This document shows positions 40,218-53,216 of a stretch of 64,000 bases of DNA, in pieces. Location of the stretch: positions 62,001 to 126,000 of the forward strand of contig JAEPQH010000002.1 of the NCBI GenBank assembly GCA_017640605.1, written 5' to 3'. This stretch comes from Balneolaceae bacterium (GTDB lineage: Bacteria; Bacteroidota; Rhodothermia; Balneolales; Balneolaceae). The notes below the pieces were generated by a model. The model was not told the origin of the DNA. It did no database searches and saw nothing but the letters and a program-made list of their open reading frames with translations. The stretch's first letter is position 1, and the number at the start of each line of letters is the position of its first letter. A program made the translations under genes and the position numbers.

Positions 40218-40994
40218 GTGGCAAACGAGCATTTATTTATATCAGATGCTCATTTAGGAGCGCATCCACCGAAACAAGAACAACAGGTGCAGCAATCATT
40301 AATTAAATTGATTGAATATGCCACACGCCAAAAGGCAAAGTTGTACATACTAGGTGATCTTTTTGATTATTGGATGGAATTCCCCAACTCTGAAATCCGA
40401 CCTCGCATTGGTGATGAAGTTTTAACTGCATTTGGCACCTATCATAAGTTGGTTGGTGCTAGTTTATTTATTACCGGTAATCACGATAACTGGACGCTTG
40501 GATATTTTGATTCACTCGGTTTTGACGTTGAACCCAATTTTCGGTTAATATCTATTTTTGATAGACAGATTCATCTTATGCATGGGGATGGGCTCTGGAA
40601 ACCTGATAATTCGCTTAAGCGTCCGTTTATGCACCGAATATTGCGCTCAAACTCATTTCTATCGGTGTACCGTAACATATTGCCAAATAAAATTGCACTT
40701 TCTTTAATGCAAAGCTTTTCGAATACAACTCGAAAAATTGATCGTAGAGATCCGGCACCATTAAATGAAAATGCAAAATTAATTCTTGATCATACTAAAG
40801 CTGATATCGTACTTACCGGTCATGATCATATTCCTCGAGTGGAAACTTTTAATTCAGGATTGTATATAAATCTGGGTACCTTTTTCCATCATTGCACGTT
40901 AGTACGAGGGTTTGAGCACTCAATCGAGTTAGTACAATGGGATTCAGCATCAAGTACATTCACTTCATTTGAAAAATATCATCAACATTCATGA
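40218..40994 (+). CDS. lpxH: UDP-2,3-diacylglucosamine diphosphatase (LpxH-type)
   Basis: This is 258 residues from a GTG immediately after the previous stop. The metallophosphoesterase ligands are present in order: FISDAHLGAH, LGDLFDYWMEF, ITGNHDNWTLG, LMHGDGLW and LTGHDHIPRVE. LpxH cleaves UDP-diacylglucosamine to lipid X in lipid A synthesis at the inner face of the inner membrane. It therefore shows that the organism makes LPS. It lies between an isoprenoid gene and a penicillin-binding protein and overlaps the latter by 4 bp. LpxG-like or other calcineurin-type functions are less likely. Confidence 0.9.
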   Translation: MANEHLFISDAHLGAHPPKQEQQVQQSLIKLIEYATRQKAKLYILGDLFDYWMEFPNSEIRPRIGDEVLTAFGTYHKLVGASLFITGNHDNWTLGYFDSLGFDVEPNFRLISIFDRQIHLMHGDGLWKPDNSLKRPFMHRILRSNSFLSVYRNILPNKIALSLMQSFSNTTRKIDRRDPAPLNENAKLILDHTKADIVLTGHDHIPRVETFNSGLYINLGTFFHHCTLVRGFEHSIELVQWDSASSTFTSFEKYHQHS

Positions 40995-43348
40995 GTTCAT
41001 CTAAACGAGAACCTATCGATCAACACCGATATTTCAATGATCCGGAATATCGTAGCAAAATTCTTGCTGAGCGCAATAATGCAGAGTCTCCAGACAACAG
41101 AAATGATACCGGTTCGAAAAGCCCCCGCTCGGGGAATGATGTAACACGAGCCATTTTTAAATTTACAGGAATCTTTCTTCTCGTTTGTTTCTTGGGCGCT
41201 TCAGGATATATCTACTTTTTGTTTCAAGGATTACCAAGTATTGAACAGCTAGAAAATCCGGACACTGCAATTGCAACAGAAGTTCGCAGTAGAGACGGTG
41301 TTGTACTGGATAAATACTTTACTGAAAACAGAACCTGGGTTCGATACGATGATATTTCACCCCACGCCATTGATGCCCTCGTAGCTACCGAAGATCACCG
41401 ATTCTTCAATCATTGGGGTATGGATATGGTTAGAACACTTGCTATCCCCTATCACTTAATTCAAGGCAGGCGTCAGGGTGGTTCAACCATTAGCCAACAA
41501 CTTGCAAGAAACTTATATAAAGAAATCGGACAGGCATTTTCGGTTTCCCGAAAGTTTCGTGAAATGATCACTGCCGTTCAGATCGAAAAAAATTACACGA
41601 AGCGTGAAATCATCGAAATGTACTTAAATACGGTAGAGTACAGTAACAGCGCCTTTGGTATCGAAGCTGCTGCAAGAACTCACTTTAATAAACCAGCGGC
41701 GGAACTAAATGTAACCGAGGCCGCAACTTTAGTGGGAAGTGTGAATGCGGTGTATGCCTACAATCCAAGACTTTTTCCGGAGAAATCAAAACAACGACGC
41801 GATATTGTACTTACTCTGATGAATCGCCAAGGCTTTATTGATGCAAACACAATGCAGGCTTTGAAAAGCGAACCTATAAATTTAGACTACCAGCCACCAA
41901 GTAAAGCAGGAAGAGTTTCTCGTTATTTTGGTGAATATGTTCGCCAAAACGTGACCGAATGGGCCAAAGAAAACGGATATGATATTTATACAGATGGATT
42001 GGTGATTTACACAACCATCGATTCTCGATTGCAACGCCACGCAGAACGTGCCATGCGTACCAAACTTGATTCACTTCAAAAAATATTTGAACGTGAGTGG
42101 ACTTCCCGAGGAAGTGGCGTGTATATGGATAAGCTTTGGGAAGAATACCCAACTTTTAAAGATAGTTTCTTAGAAGATACCGACGAGTACAAAAATGGAT
42201 TCAAAAACTACAACACAAACATTCGAAAAGTAGTTTTGGATAGCTTAAAAGCCGATTCCATGTTTGTGGATTCGGTGATGAAATCACGAACTCGATTAGA
42301 AGCAGGCTTTGTTGCAGTTGATCCGACGAATGGAAATGTTTTAGCCTGGGTAGGTGGATCAAATTACGGAAACGTGCAATTTGATCATGTGTATCAATCG
42401 AGGCGGCAGGCTGGTTCTACTTTTAAACCTTTCGTATATGCCGTAGCCATTGATAATGGATATAAACCTTATCACAAATTTTCGAAATACCCCACTAAGT
42501 TCTACGATCGCAACGGAAATGTATGGGCGCCAAAGGATCAAACCGTGGGTTCTGGTCCAATTATGGTTTCACTTAGAGAAGCGCTGGCTCGTAGTATGAA
42601 TAATGTTACCGTACGCTTACTCCCCGAAATTGCCGGTGCTCCCGACACTAATGAATTATGGCGACTTGATCCCGCTGCTCGGAAGATTAAAGAAATGGCC
42701 TCCAATTTAGGTATCGATATGTCCAATTCTCCGGCCTATCCATCCATTGCGTTAGGAACAGCCGAAGTTTCGCTTCTTGAGATTACCAGTGCCTATACTA
42801 CTTTTGCAAATCAAGGTGTACATATCGATCCAATTGCAATAACCAGAATTGAAGATCGTGAAGGAAATGTATTGATAGAATATCATCCGGATTACCGACA
42901 AGAAGTAATCAGCCCGGAAACAGCCTATATAATGACTGATTTAATGCGTGGCGTTATTCGTGGCGGTGAAGGATATAATGGCACTGGTGTTCGATTGAGA
43001 AATGTATATGGTGTTCGGCAGGATATTGCAGGCAAAACCGGAACCACTCAAAATTCTGCAGATAACTGGTTCATTGCTATGACCCCACACATTGTGATGG
43101 GAGCCTGGGTTGGTGGCGAGGATCGTCGAATTCGTTTCCCAACCGATAACCCGAACAGTATTGGTCAAGGTGCCAGAACAGCCCTACCGATTGTTGGAGA
43201 ATTTATAAACATGGTAACTGCAGATCCCGACGCGTATTGGGGCTATGATTCGTTCACTCCTCCGCCCGGATTCATAATGCCCGAAGATCCGGAAGAAGCA
43301 CGGAATGAGATGCTGAGAGATAATGAACGAGGAAGAATTGGTTGGTAG
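40991..43348 (+). CDS. Class A penicillin-binding protein (PBP1A-like)
   Basis: This is 785 residues. A cytoplasmic N-terminus and one membrane helix (~52-74) precede a GT51 glycosyltransferase (ATEDHRFFNHWGMD with the catalytic Glu; GGSTISQQLARNLY; EMYLNTVEYSNSAFG). The transpeptidase follows with the Ser nucleophile in AGSTFKPFVYAVAI (~478), SMNN and AGKTGTTQNSADNWF (~681). A charged insertion of about 75-80 residues (roughly residues 350-430) separates the two catalytic halves. It polymerises and cross-links peptidoglycan. The ATG overlaps the lpxH stop (ATGA), so lipid A and cell-wall genes are coupled. Confidence 0.96.
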   Translation: MSSSKREPIDQHRYFNDPEYRSKILAERNNAESPDNRNDTGSKSPRSGNDVTRAIFKFTGIFLLVCFLGASGYIYFLFQGLPSIEQLENPDTAIATEVRSRDGVVLDKYFTENRTWVRYDDISPHAIDALVATEDHRFFNHWGMDMVRTLAIPYHLIQGRRQGGSTISQQLARNLYKEIGQAFSVSRKFREMITAVQIEKNYTKREIIEMYLNTVEYSNSAFGIEAAARTHFNKPAAELNVTEAATLVGSVNAVYAYNPRLFPEKSKQRRDIVLTLMNRQGFIDANTMQALKSEPINLDYQPPSKAGRVSRYFGEYVRQNVTEWAKENGYDIYTDGLVIYTTIDSRLQRHAERAMRTKLDSLQKIFEREWTSRGSGVYMDKLWEEYPTFKDSFLEDTDEYKNGFKNYNTNIRKVVLDSLKADSMFVDSVMKSRTRLEAGFVAVDPTNGNVLAWVGGSNYGNVQFDHVYQSRRQAGSTFKPFVYAVAIDNGYKPYHKFSKYPTKFYDRNGNVWAPKDQTVGSGPIMVSLREALARSMNNVTVRLLPEIAGAPDTNELWRLDPAARKIKEMASNLGIDMSNSPAYPSIALGTAEVSLLEITSAYTTFANQGVHIDPIAITRIEDREGNVLIEYHPDYRQEVISPETAYIMTDLMRGVIRGGEGYNGTGVRLRNVYGVRQDIAGKTGTTQNSADNWFIAMTPHIVMGAWVGGEDRRIRFPTDNPNSIGQGARTALPIVGEFINMVTADPDAYWGYDSFTPPPGFIMPEDPEEARNEMLRDNERGRIGW

Positions 43349-43548: not shown

Positions 43549-44151
43549 ATGAACAAGGGGAAATTCACCACTCCAAATACCTTATTAGTAGCACTAGCTT
43601 TGCTAGTAACTGTATCAGCAATCGGTTGCGGTTCATCCAATAAAATGACAAAAGCTGAAGCCGCCGCACAGCGTGAGATCGATAAAATGCCGGGTTGGTA
43701 TCTCAATCCACCCGAAGATAATGACGAATACCTATACGAGATTGCAGAAGTAACTATGAGCAGACGTAGTTCGGCCCGGCAATCGGCTATCATTCAAGGG
43801 CGTACTGCATTAAGTGCAAAATTGGGCGTTAAAGTAGAAGCGCTGCAAAAATTATTCGAAGAAGAAGTTACCAATGGTAACGAATCGGTTTATAGCGCTG
43901 CATTTACTGCTGCCAATCAAAATGTGATTTCACAAGATTTACGCGCTGCTTCGGTTGCAGAGCAGGCGTTTGTTCCAACTGCTAGCGGACAATACACCTC
44001 ATATGTACTAATGCGTTTACCCATTGGTGATGCAAGAGAGATAATTGACAATGCATTATCTCAGGATGAAGAGCTCTATATTCGCTTTAAAGAATCGAAA
44101 GCTTTTGAAGAATTGATGGAAAACTTAGAGCGACTAGGTTACGATCAATAG
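43549..44151 (+). CDS. LPP20-family lipoprotein
   Basis: This is 200 residues. A lipoprotein leader (LLVTVSAIGCGSS) with the lipobox AIGC precedes an LPP20-like domain. KMPGWYLNPPEDNDEYLYEI is followed by AEVTMSRRSSARQSAIIQGR and LSAKLGVKV, the typical aromatic stretch then Ala-rich helix then AxL pattern. AAGGG about 9 bases before the ATG may be the ribosome site. It is monocistronic, ended by a strong terminator. LPP20 relatives occur as surface lipoproteins and in flagellar outer-ring proteins, but the role here is unknown. Three more LPP20-like modules are encoded within the next 6 kb. Confidence 0.88.
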   Translation: MNKGKFTTPNTLLVALALLVTVSAIGCGSSNKMTKAEAAAQREIDKMPGWYLNPPEDNDEYLYEIAEVTMSRRSSARQSAIIQGRTALSAKLGVKVEALQKLFEEEVTNGNESVYSAAFTAANQNVISQDLRAASVAEQAFVPTASGQYTSYVLMRLPIGDAREIIDNALSQDEELYIRFKESKAFEELMENLERLGYDQ

Positions 44152-44168
44152 AACGGGTTGAGTTTTTA

Positions 44169-44202
44169 AACAGGAGCTACAATCGCTCCTGTTTTATTTT
44201 TT
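44169..44202 (+). terminator. Strong rho-independent terminator after the LPP20 gene
   Basis: AACAGGAGC pairs with GCTCCTGTT around a 7-base loop and is followed by a T-rich run to 44202. It separates the LPP20 gene from the PEGA operon, so that operon needs its own promoter in 44203-44302. Confidence 0.92.
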
Positions 44203-44302
44203 CTAATCCGTCTCTCAATTACATTAGTGTTGATTGATAATCGGCATAAGTAATAGGAATTATTCAAAACATCCACTTTTCGCCTATCCAAACAGTTACG
44301 CC

Positions 44303-46135
44303 ATGTTTAGGACTACTATTTTTTCGGGTTTACAATATCGTTTAGCATCCTGCTTTCTCGGCATTCTATTTATGTGTTCATGTACTATAAATGCTCAACA
44401 ATTGGATGATCTCGTAGTATCACCTATTGAAAACCCCTTATCAACCATTCCGGTATTTGTGGATTTTCCCGACGATGCTGCCATCATTATTACCTCTTCC
44501 CTAACCAACTTACGATTTGATTCGAATGTAGAAATCATCGCAGATCGTAGTGAGCCGGCAAGTGGTGAGTATCGCCTGATTATCCCACCATTCCGACAAA
44601 CTATTGCCGTTTATGCTGATAATTACAAGCAATTACGTTTTACGGTTCCGGTTTCTGAGGCTCGACAGGTTTTATTTTACTCGATTGAGCCCAAAGAAGA
44701 AGACGTAAATGTTGTACCTACTTTTTTTGCTGTTAGTCCTGCACAGGCCATGGATGCCACAGTTTTTATTGACGATCAGGTGGTTGATATAAACCGAGCG
44801 GTTAATCTTGAGGAAGGAACACATCAACTACGCATCGAAAAAACCGGTTATCGCACTATTACGGAAGAAATTATTATCTCGGCAGATCAGAATATCCGCA
44901 AATATGAGATGGAGCCCATGCAAACGCAATTAGTTACGGTCACTTCATCTCCCGAAAATGCCCGCATCGAAATAAATGATGTGGAGCGCGGATCAACCGA
45001 TTATCAGGGATTTCTATTTCCGGGCAATTATTTTATTCGGGTAGCAAAGAACGGTTATAAAACGATACAACAATCTATCGAAGTGGTTGATGGTGACACC
45101 AATGCATTTCACTTTGAATTGGAGGAATATGGGGGCGACTTGATGCTTACTCTCTCTCCTTCAAATGCTAGAGTTACGTTAAATGATCAACCTGTTGATT
45201 TAACCAATGGTTGGGCTAAAGTTCATCCGGGCACATATAATATGGTGGTTGCGGCTACAGGATATGAAACATATTCTGAGCCGATTGTTGTGCTAGAAAA
45301 TGAAGTTATAGAACGCAATATTTCGCTTCGAAAACTAGTGGGAACGCTTCAACAAACCATTCGACCAATTTTTGCGACGGTTACATTACTCGATGAAAAT
45401 GGAGTGTTGGTGGATGAATGGCAGGGTGCAAATCGAATAAATGATTTGCCCGTTGGCACCTACACCATCGAAGCGGTTGCCAGCGATTACAAACGATATC
45501 GGCGAACCATCACTATCAGAGAAGGTGAAATCGAAGAGCATGACATACGCTTAGAGTTACTCAATCCTGTTGCGCTGAGCGAGGATACCGCTTTGGAAGA
45601 ATCCTCTACCGGAAATGAGCGCAATGATGTTTATCGCGAAGATCGTGGTGGTTTTTTCAATTATCCCGATTTTGAAGGCATGTATCTTCACTACAACCTC
45701 TTTGAGCCCAATACAAATGCATTTGCTTCGAATGTAGAGGAAGGTGTGGGATTTGGAATTGGCTTTTATAAACATCGAGGCATCATAACTACAAGTTTTG
45801 ATTTAGTTTATAATCGATATCAATTTGTTAATTCTGAATTGTTACCGGAAGAAATCAGATCCTATAACGTTTCCACTTCTTTGGTTCCAACGCTCTCTTT
45901 CGGTCCTGTATTGATTGGCTACGGCGTAGGATTAGATTTTACTCAATACGAAGAACCTGCCAGCCAATCTTTCGATTACACCTACGATGCATTCACAGCA
46001 TTTCAAATCACCTTTAAGCCAAAAAGTTGGGGACTTGGATTTATGATTGATAATCGAAAAAGTTGGGATATTGGCTTTGCTGAGGAGTATCGCGAATGGG
46101 CACAGCTTAAATACAGTATTGTTTTGGAGATTTAA
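44303..46135 (+). CDS. PEGA-repeat outer-membrane protein with C-terminal barrel-like domain
   Basis: The ATG at 44303 gives 610 residues; upstream codons to 44234 lie ahead of the leader. The leader (LGILFMCSCTINAQQ) could be cut by signal peptidase I after NAQ, or by signal peptidase II at Cys. Then come four or five PEGA-like modules of ~70-80 residues. Examples are VTSSPENARIEINDVERGST with PGNYFIRVAKNGYK, TLSPSNARVTLNDQPVDL with HPGTYNMVVAATGYE, and DLPVGTYTIEAVASDYKRY. The last ~170 residues are beta-barrel-like (VGFGIGFYKHRGIITTSFDL; WAQLKYSIVLEI). PEGA domains resemble pilus-adhesin or S-layer associated folds. It begins an operon of secreted proteins. Confidence 0.82.
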   Translation: MFRTTIFSGLQYRLASCFLGILFMCSCTINAQQLDDLVVSPIENPLSTIPVFVDFPDDAAIIITSSLTNLRFDSNVEIIADRSEPASGEYRLIIPPFRQTIAVYADNYKQLRFTVPVSEARQVLFYSIEPKEEDVNVVPTFFAVSPAQAMDATVFIDDQVVDINRAVNLEEGTHQLRIEKTGYRTITEEIIISADQNIRKYEMEPMQTQLVTVTSSPENARIEINDVERGSTDYQGFLFPGNYFIRVAKNGYKTIQQSIEVVDGDTNAFHFELEEYGGDLMLTLSPSNARVTLNDQPVDLTNGWAKVHPGTYNMVVAATGYETYSEPIVVLENEVIERNISLRKLVGTLQQTIRPIFATVTLLDENGVLVDEWQGANRINDLPVGTYTIEAVASDYKRYRRTITIREGEIEEHDIRLELLNPVALSEDTALEESSTGNERNDVYREDRGGFFNYPDFEGMYLHYNLFEPNTNAFASNVEEGVGFGIGFYKHRGIITTSFDLVYNRYQFVNSELLPEEIRSYNVSTSLVPTLSFGPVLIGYGVGLDFTQYEEPASQSFDYTYDAFTAFQITFKPKSWGLGFMIDNRKSWDIGFAEEYREWAQLKYSIVLEI

Positions 46136-46693
46136 ATGAGGGGTAAATCGATAAATAAATTATGCGTTCTGTTCGGTATAACTTTGCTGTTGATGCAATG
46201 CGAAGAAACTCCCGAAGGTATCCAAAGAGCTTTGTTTGATGATATCGCCGCTCAGGATATTAAACTTCAACTCTCGATGCCCATCATTACGGATGTTTCG
46301 TTAACTGGAAATGATCCAAAAGCCAACAACGGAATGGCTAATTGGGGAGAAGTTGTCTATTTCGATGCCACGCTCGGGAATCCATTACCTGAATCAGTAT
46401 CCGATGTAGAACTCGAAATTCTTGGCGTAAATAATACCACACACATTGTTGATTGGTACGATGATCGATTAGATTACGGCGCAATTCTCCCCTACACTTC
46501 TCGGGCTCCGGAAGATTATTTGTGCTTATTATGCAACGATCCGGAAGAAATCTATTTGGGTAGAACTTGGGTGGAAATTAATGCGAACAATCTGGGCACT
46601 TCCTCTATTACTTTGGATATACAGATAACGTTCGATTTCAGAGAAACAGAATTCGTACAAATGGCTACGCATACCTTCACCATATTTCCATGA
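46136..46693 (+). CDS. Putative lipoprotein of unknown function
   Basis: This is 185 residues, with the ATG directly after the previous TAA. The leader LCVLFGITLLLMQCEET ends in a Cys preceded by MQ, an atypical lipobox, so lipidation is likely but not certain. The rest is a single beta-rich domain (VVYFDATLGNPLPESVSDVE, ITLDIQITFDFRE) with three Cys around residues 129-132. No family is recognised. It sits between the PEGA barrel and the LPP20-containing protein, co-transcribed and with spacing of a few bases, so it probably belongs to the same envelope assembly. Confidence 0.75.
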   Translation: MRGKSINKLCVLFGITLLLMQCEETPEGIQRALFDDIAAQDIKLQLSMPIITDVSLTGNDPKANNGMANWGEVVYFDATLGNPLPESVSDVELEILGVNNTTHIVDWYDDRLDYGAILPYTSRAPEDYLCLLCNDPEEIYLGRTWVEINANNLGTSSITLDIQITFDFRETEFVQMATHTFTIFP

Positions 46694-46696
46694 ATT

Positions 46697-48253
46697 ATGT
46701 TTCTTAAAAGTCACATACGCCTGTTATTGCTTGGATTCGTTCTTTTGAGTTCATCGGCAGTACATGTTGTGTATGGGCAAATCTCAGAAAAAGAGATAAA
46801 ATTGAGTGGTAATTATTATTGGGGACAAGGTTATGGAGAACAACGAGAAGGCGCGATTAACAATGCAAAACGTGATTTGATTGAAAAACTGATTGTGCGT
46901 GTCGAGTCCGAATCCCGTTTTACTGAGCGAGATACCAATGAGGAATACTCGGTGGAACTACAATCCACCACTCAAACTTCGAGTAGAATTGAGCTCCGTG
47001 GATTAAACTATTTTCCCGCAAAAGAACGCCGAGATGGGACATGGGAAACCATAGCCTATCTCTCAAAAAGCGCATTCAACCAAAGTATTAACGATGCCGA
47101 ACAGCGCTTTCTTAGCGCCCTCTCCTATGCCTTGGAAGACGAACGAACCGGCAATATGAATGCCGCAATTCCGGTATATATGGATTTACTTGCTTCCACC
47201 TATTTCTATCCCGTTTCATTTTACACCACACCGGATGTTAATGGCGAACAGTTTGAACTACGCTCATTTTTAGTTCGAAAATTGAATAACTGGATCAATA
47301 CCATAGATTGGGAAGTTACAGCCATCCGAAATCTTAGTTCTGAATCGCATACCGAAATCTATTTTGATCTCTTTTTTACTTATAAAAACGAGCCGGTTTC
47401 GAATCTTTTGTTGAGTTTAAATAAACCAGGCTATCCCGTGCATAATGTTCAGCGAGGCCTGACCTCTGTTTTCTACGATTACAAACCTGATGAGCTCATA
47501 GAACGGTTTCAGACCAATCTCAATCCAGAAATTTACCCTGTAATCGAAGAAGAGAAACAAGAATTACTTTCAGAGATTCTCCCACAACGAGCAATAGTAC
47601 TGGAAGTAGATTTCAGCGATATCATCAACATCGATATCGAACTGGATAATACAAACGAAAATACCTGGGTTGCCTACCCTGAGGTAAAAAACCTGAGTGT
47701 ATTTGATGTACAATGGACATACAAAGGTGAATTATATTCAACCAATACTCTCACTATCAATCCGTCTTTGTTGAATACGGATACCCCCATACAGTTGACC
47801 TTAAATGCTTCGGAAGCATTAAGTATACAGCGCATTATCACTCCAAGTGGAATGTTGGTTAAACCTTCTGATGCCATTATAACCAATAATTCATCCACTG
47901 AAAATGAGTTATTAATCCTGCAATCTCAGGATGTTATTATTGAAATCCCGAGTGATAAAAACCAGTATCTCGAACAGATTTTGAAGTTTAAAAACGGAAC
48001 TCGCCTCACTCAATACTTAAATCGTTTGAAATCACGTGGAGTTATCAAGCAGGTAGGAAATAAAGCTTCAATGCCTGATTCAGAGTTAAGTTATATTGCC
48101 ATCATTGAACCCCGAAATCGGAAAGTTGAAGCCGTACTCAGTCCGGTTGTAGAAGGTTATCGAACAGATCTGAATAACGAAAAAACCGTTGCTAATACCA
48201 CGTTATCCGAAACTTATGCCGGCATGGGTTCCATTTGGTTTCAGTTTAATTGA
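46697..48253 (+). CDS. Secreted protein with N-terminal LPP20-like domain
   Basis: This is 518 residues with a signal peptide (LLLLGFVLLSSSAVHVVYGQ). The first ~130 mature residues fit the LPP20/FlgT-N pattern: LSGNYYWGQGYGEQREGAIN, then AKRDLIEKLIVRVESESRF. The rest consists of a helical TPR-like stretch (FLSALSYALEDERTGNMNAA) and beta-rich domains, including IEDPSDK-like sensor segments (LILQSQDVIIEIPSDKNQY). No known family covers it. It follows the small lipoprotein by 3 bp. A role in an outer-membrane complex analogous to FlgT-P is possible, but no flagellar gene is present in this window. Confidence 0.75.
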   Translation: MFLKSHIRLLLLGFVLLSSSAVHVVYGQISEKEIKLSGNYYWGQGYGEQREGAINNAKRDLIEKLIVRVESESRFTERDTNEEYSVELQSTTQTSSRIELRGLNYFPAKERRDGTWETIAYLSKSAFNQSINDAEQRFLSALSYALEDERTGNMNAAIPVYMDLLASTYFYPVSFYTTPDVNGEQFELRSFLVRKLNNWINTIDWEVTAIRNLSSESHTEIYFDLFFTYKNEPVSNLLLSLNKPGYPVHNVQRGLTSVFYDYKPDELIERFQTNLNPEIYPVIEEEKQELLSEILPQRAIVLEVDFSDIINIDIELDNTNENTWVAYPEVKNLSVFDVQWTYKGELYSTNTLTINPSLLNTDTPIQLTLNASEALSIQRIITPSGMLVKPSDAIITNNSSTENELLILQSQDVIIEIPSDKNQYLEQILKFKNGTRLTQYLNRLKSRGVIKQVGNKASMPDSELSYIAIIEPRNRKVEAVLSPVVEGYRTDLNNEKTVANTTLSETYAGMGSIWFQFN

Positions 48254-48269
48254 TGTTGTTTAACAAACT

Positions 48270-49229
48270 ATGAATCTATCGTTCAAACATAGCTTCCTCA
48301 CTTTTTTGGCTTGTATTTGTACCTTTGTGCCGCTATTTGCTAAACAAGATGTAGAAGTTTTTGTTGCGGATTTTGCCAACGACGAACTCAGATTAAACAT
48401 TGAGCAAAATGCGAGCGCATTCCTATCCACTATAAATTCCTCTTCACCCCGATCAGAAATCAATTTCTCGGATACTGCGAAGTTCGCAGACCGATTTAAC
48501 GATGCATTTAATGAGCTGTGGGAAAACACCCCGTTTTATATTCCTGAAACTACCATCATCGAAACGGTAAATCGGCTAACGAATGGCACGTACGAAATGC
48601 GCAATATTCCTGCATATTTCCTTACTCCTGAGGGAGAAGAATTGTATGAAGAAACCGTGCTTCAATTTGATGCTGATGGCCGCATTATAAATTTCCGAAT
48701 TGGCTTGCCTGCACATCGCTATCAAAACCTGATGCTGGAAGGTGAAGATGTAACCGATCAGGCAAATCGAGCTGTAATTCTGCAATTTGTAGAACAAGTT
48801 CGTACAGCATACAATCGAAAGGATCTGGAATTCATCAACACTGTTTTTTCCGATCAGGCGCTAATCATCGTAGGAAGTGTAATACAAAATACCGGTGATG
48901 AATCGGCCTATCAGCAACAAGTAGAATACCTGCAATTCACTAAAGATGAGTACATTCAACGACTGAGTGGAATCTTTTCGCGCAACGAGTGGATTGATGT
49001 AGGCTACGAAGATATCGGGATATTCAGACACCCCAAACATCCGGAGATTTATGGAGTTTCTCTTACTCAGTATTATAACTCCTCTACCTACAGCGATGAA
49101 GGGTATCTGTTTTTATTGATCGATTTTAAAAATCCCGATCAGCCTATGATTCACGTTAGAACCTGGCAGCCTAAAAATTCCACGCCGGAAGATGAAATTT
49201 TCCACATTGGATATATGGAGATTTTCTAA
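48270..49229 (+). CDS. Exported protein with NTF2/SnoaL-like domain
   Basis: This is 319 residues, with a signal peptide (FLTFLACICTFVPLFAKQD). The C-terminal half begins LQFVEQVRTAYNRKDLEFIN, then TVFSDQALIIVGSVI, and ends in beta strands with HVRTWQPKN, the layout of NTF2-like domains. The N-terminal half is an alpha/beta region of unknown type. Its stop overlaps the next start (TAATG), so it is coupled to the tandem-LPP20 gene. A similar protein could bind a ligand or act as a scaffold; no enzyme motif is visible. Confidence 0.72.
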   Translation: MNLSFKHSFLTFLACICTFVPLFAKQDVEVFVADFANDELRLNIEQNASAFLSTINSSSPRSEINFSDTAKFADRFNDAFNELWENTPFYIPETTIIETVNRLTNGTYEMRNIPAYFLTPEGEELYEETVLQFDADGRIINFRIGLPAHRYQNLMLEGEDVTDQANRAVILQFVEQVRTAYNRKDLEFINTVFSDQALIIVGSVIQNTGDESAYQQQVEYLQFTKDEYIQRLSGIFSRNEWIDVGYEDIGIFRHPKHPEIYGVSLTQYYNSSTYSDEGYLFLLIDFKNPDQPMIHVRTWQPKNSTPEDEIFHIGYMEIF

Positions 49230-49999
49230 TGCTGCGTTTCACTCTCATATTTTTGACGGGATCAATCTTGCTCACTTCTTGCCGATCCTCTAAATCAGCT
49301 ACGGTGATACAATCATCCAACGATCTACAAAAAGTGCAACCTGTGAGTTCTCCGTCAAAGATACATGGAGCTGGATTTGCTCGACTCTCAAACTACAACC
49401 CAGATAGATCGTTTAAACAGGCTAAACAAAATGCCATTGTTGATTTGGAAGCAGCGCTTCTGACTAGTGTATATCTGGAATATTACGGAAATAATACCAT
49501 CAGCTCGAAGCTTCGTGCAGAATTTGCCATCGCCGACGACTTGAATGAATTTGAGTACATTGCAATCGACTCACTGGTGGTAGGTGATTGGGCGGTTTAC
49601 TTTGTAAGTGAACCTAATGCAACCTCACTACCTTTAAAAACGGTAGCGAAAGCACAGAATTCATCTTGGACGGCCCCATATTTTGAGCCTCATATGATTG
49701 ATGGTTTTTGGATTGCATCTGGATCACATCCTCAAACTCGATTTAATCCTAATCGTGGTTGGACAAAAGCTCGGCAAGAGGCGCTAAAGAACCTATCGGA
49801 ATATTTGAATACTAAAGTTCAAGCATTAGAACGTACCTACGATAACGATTATTCGTCGGTACATTATGTTACCTCAAAACACGTTTTTCAATCGATCAGT
49901 GTGATTGATCGGTTACAGATAGATGATGAATATCACGTGTTAATTATGATTCGTGAAAGTGATATTATCCGCATAGATGAACCTGTCAGCGAGAAATAA
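49229..49999 (+). CDS. Tandem LPP20-like lipoprotein
   Basis: This is 256 residues with a clear lipobox (SILLTSCRSSKS). Two LPP20-like modules lie head to tail: GAGFARLSNYNPDRSFKQAK with NAIVDLEAALLTSVYLEYYG, and WIASGSHPQTRFNPNRGWTK with ARQEALKNLSEYLNTKV. The two share the aromatic-Asn-P-R-x-W/F-K-A pattern, consistent with an internal duplication. It ends the LPP20/PEGA operon and overlaps the gluconokinase start by 23 bp, an unexpected junction between an envelope operon and a sugar-catabolic one. Confidence 0.8.
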   Translation: MLRFTLIFLTGSILLTSCRSSKSATVIQSSNDLQKVQPVSSPSKIHGAGFARLSNYNPDRSFKQAKQNAIVDLEAALLTSVYLEYYGNNTISSKLRAEFAIADDLNEFEYIAIDSLVVGDWAVYFVSEPNATSLPLKTVAKAQNSSWTAPYFEPHMIDGFWIASGSHPQTRFNPNRGWTKARQEALKNLSEYLNTKVQALERTYDNDYSSVHYVTSKHVFQSISVIDRLQIDDEYHVLIMIRESDIIRIDEPVSEK

Positions 50000-50489
50000 C
50001 TACCAAACTATTCCCCGAATTATTGTAATTGGTGTGAGTGGATGCGGCAAAAGCACCGTTGCGTCCCTCCTTGCAAAATCACTAGAAGTTTCGTTCATCG
50101 AAGCCGACGAATTCCACCCCAAGGCGAACATCCACAAAATGAAAAGCGGGACTCCACTTAACGATGAAGACCGAAAACCTTGGTTAGATACTTTGAACTC
50201 AGAGTTACACAAACGATCAGAAACCGGTTTTGTACTTGCTTGTTCGGCGTTGAAAGAACAATACCGCAAGTTGTTAAGTGATGGAATCTGGGGTATTAGG
50301 TGGATTTATCTGGATGGATCGTTTGATACAATTTTTAAGCGAATGAAAGAACGGGAGCATTTTATGAAGCCTGAAATGCTTCAAAGTCAATTCGATGCGC
50401 TCGAAATTCCCGAGTATGGAATTCACTGCTCAATTGAGTATCCTCCCGAGGAAATTGTGAACCAAATTCTAGAGCAACTTAGTGAGTAA
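49977..50489 (+). CDS. gntK: Gluconokinase
   Basis: This is 170 residues. IIVIGVSGCGKSTVASLLAK is the Walker A loop typical of GntK, ADEFHPKANIHKMKSGTPLN the gluconate site, and ACSALKEQYRKLL with IYLDGSF complete the family pattern. It phosphorylates gluconate to 6-phosphogluconate. The ATG lies inside the preceding lipoprotein gene, and its 3' end overlaps gnd by 8 bp. It is followed by gnd and a gluconate transporter, so the substrate assignment is strong. Confidence 0.95.
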   Translation: MNLSARNNYQTIPRIIVIGVSGCGKSTVASLLAKSLEVSFIEADEFHPKANIHKMKSGTPLNDEDRKPWLDTLNSELHKRSETGFVLACSALKEQYRKLLSDGIWGIRWIYLDGSFDTIFKRMKEREHFMKPEMLQSQFDALEIPEYGIHCSIEYPPEEIVNQILEQLSE

Positions 50490-51879
50490 TCTACAATCGG
50501 AAATCGGGGTAGTCGGACTTGGAGTGATGGGCGCGGCCCTTAGTTTAAATTTAGCAAGTAACACGTTTCGAGTAGCTGTTTTTAATCGTGATACAGGAAC
50601 AGAAAAAGGAACTGTTTCTAATTTCATTTCGAGAAATTCCTCACTTACCAATCTTCAGGGATTTACGGATCTCAAATCATTTATTTCGAACCTTGAACGC
50701 CCTCGAAAAATCATCCTGATGATTTCTGCAAATGCGGTGGATATCGTCCTCGACGACCTCCTTCCCCTTCTTGATGCCAACGACATCATCATTGATGCAG
50801 GAAATTCGCACTTTAAAGAAACCGAAGATCGACAATCCCGATGTGCAAAATCCGGAATCGAGTTTGTTGGATGTGGCGTTTCGGGTGGTGAACGTGGCGC
50901 TCGATTCGGTCCTTCGATTATGCCCGGAGGCTCTAAATCTGCATATGCTTCCATCGAGCCATATCTCAAGGCCATCGCTGCAAAAGATGTTCACTCCAAA
51001 CCTTGTGTGAGTTACATTGGAGCGGGCGGTTCCGGTCATTTCGTAAAAATGGTGCATAACGGCATCGAATATGTGGAAATGCAATTGCTTGCTGAACTGT
51101 ATCAACTACTCCGAAATTATTGGAGCAACGAGCAAATCTCGGAGCTGTTCGAAGAATGGAATCAGACCGATTTGCAAAGTTACCTGCTTGAAATCACAGC
51201 AAACATTCTCATCAAAAAAGAGGACGACGGATTCTTGTTGAGTTCTATTCTGGATAAAGCCGGCAACAAAGGAACCGGAAGTTGGAGCAGTATTGCTGCC
51301 CTCGAACTCGGCTCCGAAAACTCGATGATGAGCGCCGCCGTTTTTGCTCGATATCTGTCCTCTCAAAAGGAAACTCGCGCTCGACTAGATCATATTCGAG
51401 TCACTAAAGAATTTGCCGATTTTGATGTCGATGCCTTAAAAAACGCCTACAATGCCGCACGACGTCTCAATCACTTGCAAGGATTTGAGTTAATTCGTTA
51501 TGTTGCCAAAGAATTTGATTGGGACATCAATTTCAGTGAACTCGCCCGAATCTGGACCAACGGCTGCATCATCCGCTCTAACTTGATGGAAAACCTCTCC
51601 CATCGTTTTAAGAATGTTCATTCATTAATAGATGATGATGAAATTATCCAAGGGTTGAATGATCAAGAAGATGCACTTTCGGAAGTACTACAGTCATTTA
51701 TTGATTACCGAGTGGCTGCTCCGGCGTTTTCAGTGGCATGGAATTATTGGATTGGACTTACCACCGGCAACGGTCCTGCAAACCTGATCCAGGCCCAACG
51801 GGATTATTTCGGGGCACATACCTATCAACGAGTGGATGACCCGAACGGAGCATCCCATCACACAAACTGGGAGCAATAA
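50482..51879 (+). CDS. gnd: 6-phosphogluconate dehydrogenase, decarboxylating
   Basis: This is 465 residues from a GTG overlapping the gntK stop. The NADP site is IGVVGLGVMGAALSLNLASN. Active-site text includes GNSHFKETEDRQSRCAKSGI, GCGVSGGERGARFGPSIMPG and HFVKMVHNGIEYVEMQLL (Lys and Asn-Gly), and the C-terminal tail is QRDYFGAHTYQRVDDPNGAS. It converts 6-phosphogluconate to ribulose 5-phosphate and CO2. With gntK and the transporter it routes external gluconate into the pentose-phosphate pathway. No edd/eda genes are nearby. Confidence 0.97.
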   Translation: MSNLQSEIGVVGLGVMGAALSLNLASNTFRVAVFNRDTGTEKGTVSNFISRNSSLTNLQGFTDLKSFISNLERPRKIILMISANAVDIVLDDLLPLLDANDIIIDAGNSHFKETEDRQSRCAKSGIEFVGCGVSGGERGARFGPSIMPGGSKSAYASIEPYLKAIAAKDVHSKPCVSYIGAGGSGHFVKMVHNGIEYVEMQLLAELYQLLRNYWSNEQISELFEEWNQTDLQSYLLEITANILIKKEDDGFLLSSILDKAGNKGTGSWSSIAALELGSENSMMSAAVFARYLSSQKETRARLDHIRVTKEFADFDVDALKNAYNAARRLNHLQGFELIRYVAKEFDWDINFSELARIWTNGCIIRSNLMENLSHRFKNVHSLIDDDEIIQGLNDQEDALSEVLQSFIDYRVAAPAFSVAWNYWIGLTTGNGPANLIQAQRDYFGAHTYQRVDDPNGASHHTNWEQ

Positions 51880-53216
51880 TGCTTGATATTGGATTACTCG
51901 GCGCTGTGTTAGCCGGAATCGTTGTGTTACTGGTTTTGATCTTGCGATTCAAAATCCAAGCCTTCATTAGTTTATTGATTTCGAGCATTCTGGTGGGTTT
52001 ACTGGCAGGATTATCACCAAGCGAAGTCATTGCCACTATTCAGGAAGGAATGGGCAGCACACTGGGTTTTGTGGCCACGGTGGTTGGACTTGGAGCCATG
52101 TTCGGTGCGATTTTAGAGCATTCGGGCGGAGCAGAAGCCCTTGCCCGATCATTGATCGCAAAGTTCGGCGAAGACAAAGCGCCGTGGGCGTTAATGCTTA
52201 CCGGACTTGTGGTTGCCATCCCGGTTTTTTTCGATGTAGCCTTCATCATCCTGGTTCCCATTGTGTACGCCTTGCAGCGTAAAACCGGTAAATCGTTGTT
52301 GTTTTATGCCTTTCCATTGCTGGCGGGATTGGGAGCCGCTCACGTGTTCATCCCTCCAACTCCCGGTCCGGTTGCCGTTGCAGATATCCTCAATGCCGAC
52401 TTAGGCTGGGTGATCGTGTTCGGAATTATTGCAGGTTTACCGGCTGCAATTGTGGGCGGACCTATTTTCACTCGGTTTCTTACCAAACGGATGCAAGTCA
52501 CCGCCCCCGAACCCATCGAAGAAAAAGAAACCGCCTCCCTACCCTCTTTTGGGTTGATTGAATTCATCATTGGAAGCCCGATTCTGTTAATCGTTCTGAA
52601 TACGTTGTTAAACAGTCCGGGCATGGCTGCTTATTCCGGATTAGATTCGCTACGTGCTGTCTTTCAGTTGATTGGTCACCCTTTTACAGCTTTGATCATC
52701 GCCAATTTACTTGCATGGATTGTGCTGGGATTAAAGCGAGGATCATCCAAAGAAACCCTGCTCGATATCATGACAAAATCGATGGGTCCTGCCGGAATTA
52801 TCATCCTGCTAACAGGAGCCGGTGGCGTGTTTAAGCAAATGCTGGTGAATACCGGAGCGGGAGAAATGATGGCCACTTTTTTTGCCGACAAAGGGCTTGG
52901 CACCCTCTTTTTTGCCTACATCTCCGCCATTTTGATTCGCGTGTTACAAGGCTCTGCTACGGTTGCCATGATTACCGCCGCGGGTTTAGTTGCCCCTGTG
53001 TTAGTGGGGATGTCATCGATCGAAGCATCGTTGGTTGTAATCGCCATTGCTGCCGGAGCGACCATTCTTTCTCATGTAAACGACAGCGGTTTTTGGCTAG
53101 TGAGCAAATACCTCGGCTTAACCGAAGTGCAAACCCTCAAAAGTTGGTCGGTAGCCACCACCTTAATTTCAGTGACCGGCTTTATGATGGTGTTGGTGAT
53201 GAGTGTTTTTGTTTAG
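51879..53216 (+). CDS. Gluconate:H+ symporter (GntP family)
   Basis: This is 445 residues and very hydrophobic, with about 12-14 membrane segments. The family text FGAILEHSGGAEALARSLIA, PVFFDVAFIILVPIVYAL and HVFIPPTPGPVAVADILNAD matches the conserved GntP core. It imports gluconate across the inner membrane. The stop of gnd overlaps its ATG (TAATG). The operon carries no GntR-type regulator in this window, and the region after 53216 is full of repeats. Confidence 0.96.
   Translation: MLDIGLLGAVLAGIVVLLVLILRFKIQAFISLLISSILVGLLAGLSPSEVIATIQEGMGSTLGFVATVVGLGAMFGAILEHSGGAEALARSLIAKFGEDKAPWALMLTGLVVAIPVFFDVAFIILVPIVYALQRKTGKSLLFYAFPLLAGLGAAHVFIPPTPGPVAVADILNADLGWVIVFGIIAGLPAAIVGGPIFTRFLTKRMQVTAPEPIEEKETASLPSFGLIEFIIGSPILLIVLNTLLNSPGMAAYSGLDSLRAVFQLIGHPFTALIIANLLAWIVLGLKRGSSKETLLDIMTKSMGPAGIIILLTGAGGVFKQMLVNTGAGEMMATFFADKGLGTLFFAYISAILIRVLQGSATVAMITAAGLVAPVLVGMSSIEASLVVIAIAAGATILSHVNDSGFWLVSKYLGLTEVQTLKSWSVATTLISVTGFMMVLVMSVFV

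What the first reader, a model, noticed from the sequence alone, without database searches (positions are those of the whole stretch)
43549..49999. LPP20/PEGA envelope cluster: a candidate undescribed outer-membrane system
Six secreted or lipidated proteins in 6.5 kb: four LPP20-like modules in three proteins, a PEGA-stack plus barrel protein, an NTF2-like exported protein and an orphan lipoprotein, the last five in one tightly spaced operon. LPP20/FlgP/FlgT-type domains build outer-membrane rings in flagellar systems, but no flagellar gene is visible. Inference: a non-flagellar outer-membrane ring or trans-envelope complex.
Basis: partly seen in the sequence, partly recalled or inferred. Interest (0 to 1): 0.75.

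Follow-up and report, generated by a model that had tools for sequence, protein, structure and literature searches.

The report
Conserved non-flagellar LPP20/PEGA envelope module
A Balneolaceae bacterium carries a set of cell-envelope genes, found in similar form in scattered relatives across the Bacteroidota, whose outer-membrane lipoproteins resemble parts of a flagellar support disk but are kept by species without flagella, pointing to an undescribed outer-membrane scaffold whose job is still inferred.

Summary
Six exported proteins lie at 43549-49999: four LPP20-like modules in three proteins, a PEGA stack with a probable C-terminal barrel, an NTF2-like protein and a lipoprotein, all under purifying selection. 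The last five form an operon; the first is a separate unit behind a class A PBP gene. The neighbourhood is not strain-specific: 25 of 395 sampled phylum genomes carry the NTF2 family, and in ten GTDB families it sits beside or fused to the LPP20-PKD protein, usually with a PEGA gene. The 49229 product has no Pfam LPP20 match, but AlphaFold gives two SHS2 repeats with long hairpins, and its best PDB match is the FlgP-sized chain of the Campylobacter motor scaffold. Single- and double-LPP20 lipoproteins recur as neighbours, like FlgP and FlgQ. Gene contexts point to peptidoglycan enzymes (PBP1A, LpoB, lytic transglycosylase) for the lipoproteins and to giant T9SS-exported proteins for the NTF2/PEGA part. 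Best reading: a non-flagellar outer-membrane scaffold. A ring is not shown.

The parts
40991..43348 (+). class A penicillin-binding protein (PBP1A type), directly upstream of the LPP20 lipoprotein gene
   Evidence: Transgly E 2.5e-53, Transpeptidase 2.2e-29; the PBP1A-LPP20 lipoprotein pair is kept in all three genomes of the genus
43549..44151 (+). single-LPP20 lipoprotein (lipobox IGC-GSS), FlgP-like role proposed; own transcription unit
   Evidence: LPP20 15.7 bits, relatives above cut-off; 95% identical in the nearest relative; family in 39 of 245 class genomes
44168..44194 (+). intrinsic terminator-like stem-loop between 43549 and the operon
   Evidence: 10-pair stem followed by TATTTTTTCT
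44303..46135 (+). PEGA-stack protein with probable 8-stranded C-terminal outer-membrane barrel; the C-terminal domain is swapped in relatives
   Evidence: PEGA 2e-31; AlphaFold beta domains 37-416 confident, eight strands 458-609 low confidence; relatives end in GLLF, LGF or GFGF
46136..46693 (+). small lipoprotein (lipobox LMQC), beta-rich; not an orphan, homologues in G001, G002 and G080
46697..48253 (+). exported LPP20-PKD protein (LPP20 about 39-120, degenerate PKD in the middle)
   Evidence: LPP20 E 0.001; PKD in 11 of 17 family members; family profile hits collagenase PKD and LPP20 entry 4kzs among PDB sequences
48270..49229 (+). exported protein with C-terminal NTF2-like domain; widely conserved member
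   Evidence: Cds6_C E 4.7e-5; 26 of 245 class genomes, 25 of 395 phylum genomes
49229..49999 (+). tandem-LPP20 lipoprotein (lipobox LTSC), FlgQ-like role proposed
   Evidence: AlphaFold two SHS2 repeats with long beta-hairpins, pLDDT 77, pTM 0.70; Foldseek top hit 9hmf_A prob 0.97

Best explanation
The locus encodes a conserved, non-flagellar, outer-membrane-attached periplasmic scaffold of Bacteroidota. Shown: the parts exist, carry export or lipidation signals, are under selection, co-occur and cluster in distant families. Inferred: the single-LPP20 (43549) and double-LPP20 (49229) lipoproteins sit under the outer membrane like FlgP and FlgQ and associate side by side through their beta-hairpins; the PEGA protein anchors the assembly to the outer membrane by its barrel and projects a stack of beta domains; the LPP20-PKD and NTF2-like proteins (fused into one protein in eight loci) are periplasmic adaptors. 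The scaffold works where peptidoglycan and outer membrane must be coordinated, probably to let very large T9SS-exported surface proteins be displayed or anchored, together with local peptidoglycan enzymes (PBP1A, LpoB, MltC-like transglycosylase) and, in many species, a transglutaminase-like cysteine enzyme (TG514).
For: LPP20-PKD is immediately beside or fused to NTF2 in 32 of 45 NTF2 loci; fusions in four GTDB families. Same operon with PEGA and LPP20 lipoprotein in f22, and with TG514, PEGA and LPP20 lipoprotein in f57. 49229-type genes occur only where 43549-type genes occur: 17 of 17, against 39 of 245 genomes overall. 49229 fold and FlgP match. Ten NTF2 loci are directly next to a T9SS-cargo giant of 2126-3074 aa, and six more have a giant a few genes along; this genome has only four cargo frames over 2000 aa. 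LpoB, LPP20 or MltC-like genes flank the lipoprotein pair or trio in three GTDB families. Module present without FlgI and FlhA in G077 (one-contig genome), G071, G080, G014.
Against: No ring, complex, localisation or phenotype was observed. A FlgP-like fold does not imply a disk (HP1456, PMC11756786). Foldseek E is only 0.027. In this genome no T9SS cargo lies in the window and TG514 is on another contig, beside flagellins. The T9SS-linked loci of genus g7 lack LPP20-PKD and PEGA next to NTF2, so the two links may be separate functions. Module carriers are enriched for FlgI (18 of 26 against 72 of 219), so a flagellar tie is not excluded for some lineages. Genome matches are phylogenetically correlated.
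Confidence: 0.42

Rival explanations
1. Peptidoglycan-synthase control: the LPP20 lipoproteins reach from the outer membrane to class A PBPs and lytic enzymes, as LpoB does, and the five-gene operon is an added regulator of wall growth.
For: 43549 follows PBP1A in G000, G001 and G002; lipoprotein family members lie beside LpoB, MltC-like transglycosylase and a second LPP20 lipoprotein in g7, near LpoB in g24 and beside an MltC-like gene in G069; 43549 is as constrained as the PBP (dN 0.047 and 0.048).
Against: None of the six window proteins matched LpoB in Pfam. In f22 and others the same lipoprotein sits with PEGA/NTF2 and no PBP. Direct PBP1A pairing seen only in one genus.
Confidence: 0.25
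2. Giant-adhesin helper: the LPP20-PKD/NTF2/PEGA set is a dedicated export, folding or anchoring partner of giant T9SS cargo, and the lipoproteins are incidental neighbours.
For: Ten immediate and six near T9SS giants, including the distant family f27 (L212, FG-GAP and Por_Secre_tail).
Against: No giant at the window locus, at g24 loci or at most phylum loci; lipoprotein co-occurrence is too strong to be incidental (22 of 26 NTF2 genomes).
Confidence: 0.15
3. Flagellar accessory: a FlgP/FlgQ/FlgT-like disk of the Balneolota flagellar motor.
For: FlgP-like fold; carriers enriched for FlgI; TG514 adjoins a flagellin array in G000 and G001.
Against: FlgI and FlhA absent from G077, G071, G080, G014, G056, G008 and G201, which keep module genes; no flagellar gene found in any of the operons examined.
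Confidence: 0.1
4. A periplasmic signalling or caspase-linked stress or defence module.
For: In G102 (L032) the PEGA stack is fused to a C14 caspase, next to an LPP20-DUF4384 protein; PKD/NTF2 adaptors could fit such systems.
Against: Seen once; no toxin or effector recognised in the other loci.
Confidence: 0.05

Closest known systems
Campylobacter FlgP/FlgQ basal disk
   Same: Outer-membrane lipoproteins with SHS2 fold and a long hairpin; one single-domain and one double-domain partner (PMC12222027)
   Different: Kept in genomes without flagella; partners are PEGA, NTF2, PKD and TG514 proteins; no disk shown
Vibrio FlgT (FlgT_N) and H. pylori Lpp20
   Same: LPP20/SHS2 domain; one 49229 relative hits FlgT_N
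   Different: No FlgT_M or FlgT_C match in the window proteins; Lpp20 is not a disk part (PMC11756786)
LpoB activator of PBP1B
   Same: Outer-membrane lipoprotein genes near a class A PBP or LpoB
   Different: Different domain; activation not tested
T9SS cargo-linked partners such as SprF/PorP with SprB-type adhesins (from own knowledge)
   Same: Envelope gene next to a giant T9SS cargo gene
   Different: No PorP/SprF match in the window proteins; NTF2/PEGA/LPP20 instead

Membership tests
LPP20 lipoprotein (PF02169) | profile match above the gathering score | tested here: not met
   43549 15.7, 46697 19.9-23.5 bits, cut-off 25.9; 49229 none. Close relatives of 43549 do pass
LPP20 lipoprotein (PF02169) | SHS2 fold: strand, long helix, strands | tested here: met
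   AlphaFold of 49229, twice; not folded for 43549 and 46697
FlgP/FlgQ-type disk | hairpin insert between the SHS2 helix and the next strands | tested here: met
   49229 strands 78-88/91-101 and 196-204/207-221; match to 9hmf_A prob 0.97, E 0.027
FlgP/FlgQ-type disk | forms rings on the flagellar motor | not testable with these tools
   needs cryo-ET
Flagellar system part | confined to flagellated genomes | tested here: not met
   no FlgI or FlhA in G077, G071, G080, G014
PEGA protein | PF08308 match | tested here: met
   E 2e-31
Outer-membrane barrel protein | amphipathic antiparallel strands ending in a beta-signal | tested here: inconclusive
   eight strands, low pLDDT; several relatives end in F
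LpoB | PF13036 match | tested here: not met
   no match in the six window proteins
T9SS component | encoded with, or needed by, T9SS cargo | tested here: inconclusive
   16 of 45 NTF2 loci near T9SS giants, not the window locus

The most novel reading that the evidence does not exclude
A non-flagellar FlgP/FlgQ-like ring or disk under the outer membrane of Bacteroidota, built with PEGA, PKD and NTF2 parts, that opens or shapes the peptidoglycan-outer membrane space for giant T9SS surface proteins.
Probability: 0.2. Interest if true: 0.85.

Novelty: new variant of a known kind. Interest (0 to 1): 0.6.

Why it matters
To my knowledge FlgP-type disks have been described only as flagellar accessories. 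A conserved module of the same fold in genomes without flagella would show either that such disks began as general outer-membrane scaffolds or were reused, and it offers a testable candidate for how Bacteroidota fit peptidoglycan growth and giant surface proteins together. It also gives function hypotheses for several protein families that have no Pfam model (TG514, X397, the tandem-LPP20 lipoprotein).

Tried and rejected
Direct Pfam and NCBIfam assignment of 46136 and 49229: nothing useful. PDB sequence searches with profiles of 43549, 49229, NTF2 and TG514: only chance-level hits. Foldseek with the PEGA model: only Ig/PEGA-like stacks such as 6fwv, no barrel match, as expected from the poor C-terminus. 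The genome-contig scan gave one locus. Reading the L029-type 514-residue protein as a 46697 homologue was rejected: the alignment shows it is a separate family, TG514, with invariant C433, H460 and D488; alignment A4, which included it, was replaced by A9. The gluconate genes downstream (GntK-Gnd-GntP) overlap the operon end but were not found beside the operon in G002, so they were set aside. Literature searches found no description of an LPP20-PEGA system. The giant in L031 is counted by homology; its C-terminus was not fetched.

Full report
WHAT IS THERE. The window lies in a 3.74 Mb genome of 34 contigs; the nearest relative, L021 (Balneolaceae MAG HXMU1420-13), has the same gene order over 36.8-53 kb. 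Nonsynonymous change is 0.05-0.27 against saturated synonymous change for all six genes, so they are real genes under purifying selection. The PEGA gene probably begins at ATG 44303. A strong terminator-like stem at 44168-44194 parts the 43549 gene, which follows a class A PBP gene, from the operon 44303-49999.

DOMAINS. 43549: single LPP20, sub-threshold, but relatives pass the cut-off. 44303: several PEGA-type domains and probably an eight-stranded barrel. In relatives the C-terminal part is exchanged for a different membrane-type tail (L029, L078) or for a domain that looks like Fib_succ_major (L215, L217, L027, by eye), and in L032 the protein carries an N-terminal caspase, so the PEGA protein behaves as an adaptor or anchor. 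46136: a small lipoprotein with relatives in G001, G002 and G080. 46697: LPP20 then a PKD domain, which is recognised in 11 of 17 family members and degenerate here. 48270: C-terminal NTF2-like domain. 49229: two LPP20-like repeats. Its AlphaFold model (15 sequences, pLDDT 77, pTM 0.70) has strand-helix(20)-hairpin-strand-strand twice. Against 350,542 PDB chains the top match, and the only one of the 50 listed with probability above 0.2, is 9hmf chain A (probability 0.97, E 0.027). 9HMF is the Campylobacter jejuni periplasmic scaffold (PMC12222027). Chain A has 106 residues, the size of mature FlgP (11.5 kDa); that it is FlgP is my inference from size. The same paper describes the FlgP hairpin insert and FlgQ as a two-FlgP repeat. 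The pair 43549/49229 therefore resembles FlgP/FlgQ in architecture.

CONSERVATION. The NTF2 family is in 26 of 245 genomes of the GTDB class and 25 of 395 sampled over the phylum. The 43549 type is in 39 of 245 and the 49229 type in 17 of 245. All 17 of the latter also have the 43549 type, and 22 of 26 NTF2 genomes do. In 45 NTF2 loci examined, 32 have the LPP20-PKD gene directly beside NTF2 or fused to it; the eight fusions lie in families f1, f2, f25 and f57. In f22 the order is X397, LPP20-PKD, NTF2, PEGA, LPP20 lipoprotein; in f57 one operon holds TG514, PEGA, LPP20-NTF2 fusion and LPP20 lipoprotein (L223).

FLAGELLA. Carriers of the NTF2 family are enriched for FlgI (18 of 26 against 72 of 219, uncorrected Fisher p 4e-4), which may be common descent. 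But G077 (one contig), G071, G080 and G014 have NTF2, LPP20 lipoprotein and 49229-type genes with neither FlgI nor FlhA, while G074, of the same genus as G077, has flagellar genes and no NTF2 match. The module is not simply flagellar.

CONTEXT 1, PEPTIDOGLYCAN. The 43549 gene follows PBP1A in all three genomes of the genus. In genus g7 the 43549-type gene is in a row with MltC-like transglycosylase, a second LPP20 lipoprotein, a TPR-like protein and LpoB; in g24 (L136, L137) the trio 43549-type, TG514, 49229-type is one gene away from the TPR-like, LPP20 and LpoB genes; in G069 the pair is followed by an MltC-like gene. TG514 has invariant Cys, His and Asp in a transglutaminase-like arrangement, an inference from motif only; it has no Pfam or PDB match. 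In this genome it is on another contig directly after the flagellin array.

CONTEXT 2, GIANT T9SS CARGO. Ten NTF2 loci (genera g7, g17, g39 and distant family f27) have the NTF2 gene directly next to a 2126-3074 residue protein with a T9SS sorting domain; in g4, g13 and f2 six more have one a few genes along, of which L031's C-terminus was not read. Por_Secre_tail was found by Pfam in L080 (just below its cut-off), L083, L084, L085, L088 and L212; the others show the same C-terminal pattern by eye and by a profile built from these tails, which is partly circular. This genome holds 73 Por_Secre_tail proteins over cut-off but only four in frames above 2000 residues, so by chance direct adjacency to such a giant would be expected in well under 1% of loci (estimate, assuming some 3,300 genes). 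The loci are related by descent, so the number of independent events is smaller, perhaps three or four. The window locus itself has no such neighbour.

MECHANISM. Shown: parts, selection, co-occurrence, fusion, predicted fold of 49229. Inferred: outer-membrane attachment by lipid and barrel, sideways assembly through hairpins, adaptor role of PEGA, PKD and NTF2 domains, and a task at the peptidoglycan-outer membrane interface, probably for large T9SS surface proteins. The main caution is that H. pylori Lpp20 (HP1456), of the same fold, proved not to be a disk part (PMC11756786).

VERDICT. The ring remains a hypothesis. I file the lipoproteins as LPP20/SHS2-like by fold and family relatives, not as members of PF02169 by its cut-off, and not as FlgP.

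Noticed in passing
L188:9195-17944 (G000:C33): Six tandem flagellin-like genes followed directly, same strand, by a TG514 transglutaminase-like protein; similar arrangement in G001 (L189).
   Followed up: partly
L032:424-3006 (G102): PEGA stack fused to a C14 caspase domain, close to an LPP20-DUF4384 protein.
   Followed up: no
L035:8293-11284 (G000:C11): A second LPP20 lipoprotein (above cut-off) next to LpoB and a 439-residue protein in the same genome.
   Followed up: partly
G000 genome: 73 proteins with a T9SS Por_Secre_tail above cut-off, in frames of up to 2916 residues.
   Followed up: no
window 49977-53216: GntK, Gnd and GntP genes overlap the end of the envelope operon and may be co-transcribed; not found beside it in G002.
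   Followed up: partly
L213:11700-12893, also L216, L218, L219: A conserved 355-397 residue exported protein (X397) with no Pfam domain heads the operon in family f22 but is missing from the window locus.
   Followed up: partly
L026:4710-6363 (G099): An AbiE-type toxin-antitoxin pair lies beside the LPP20-PKD gene.
   Followed up: no
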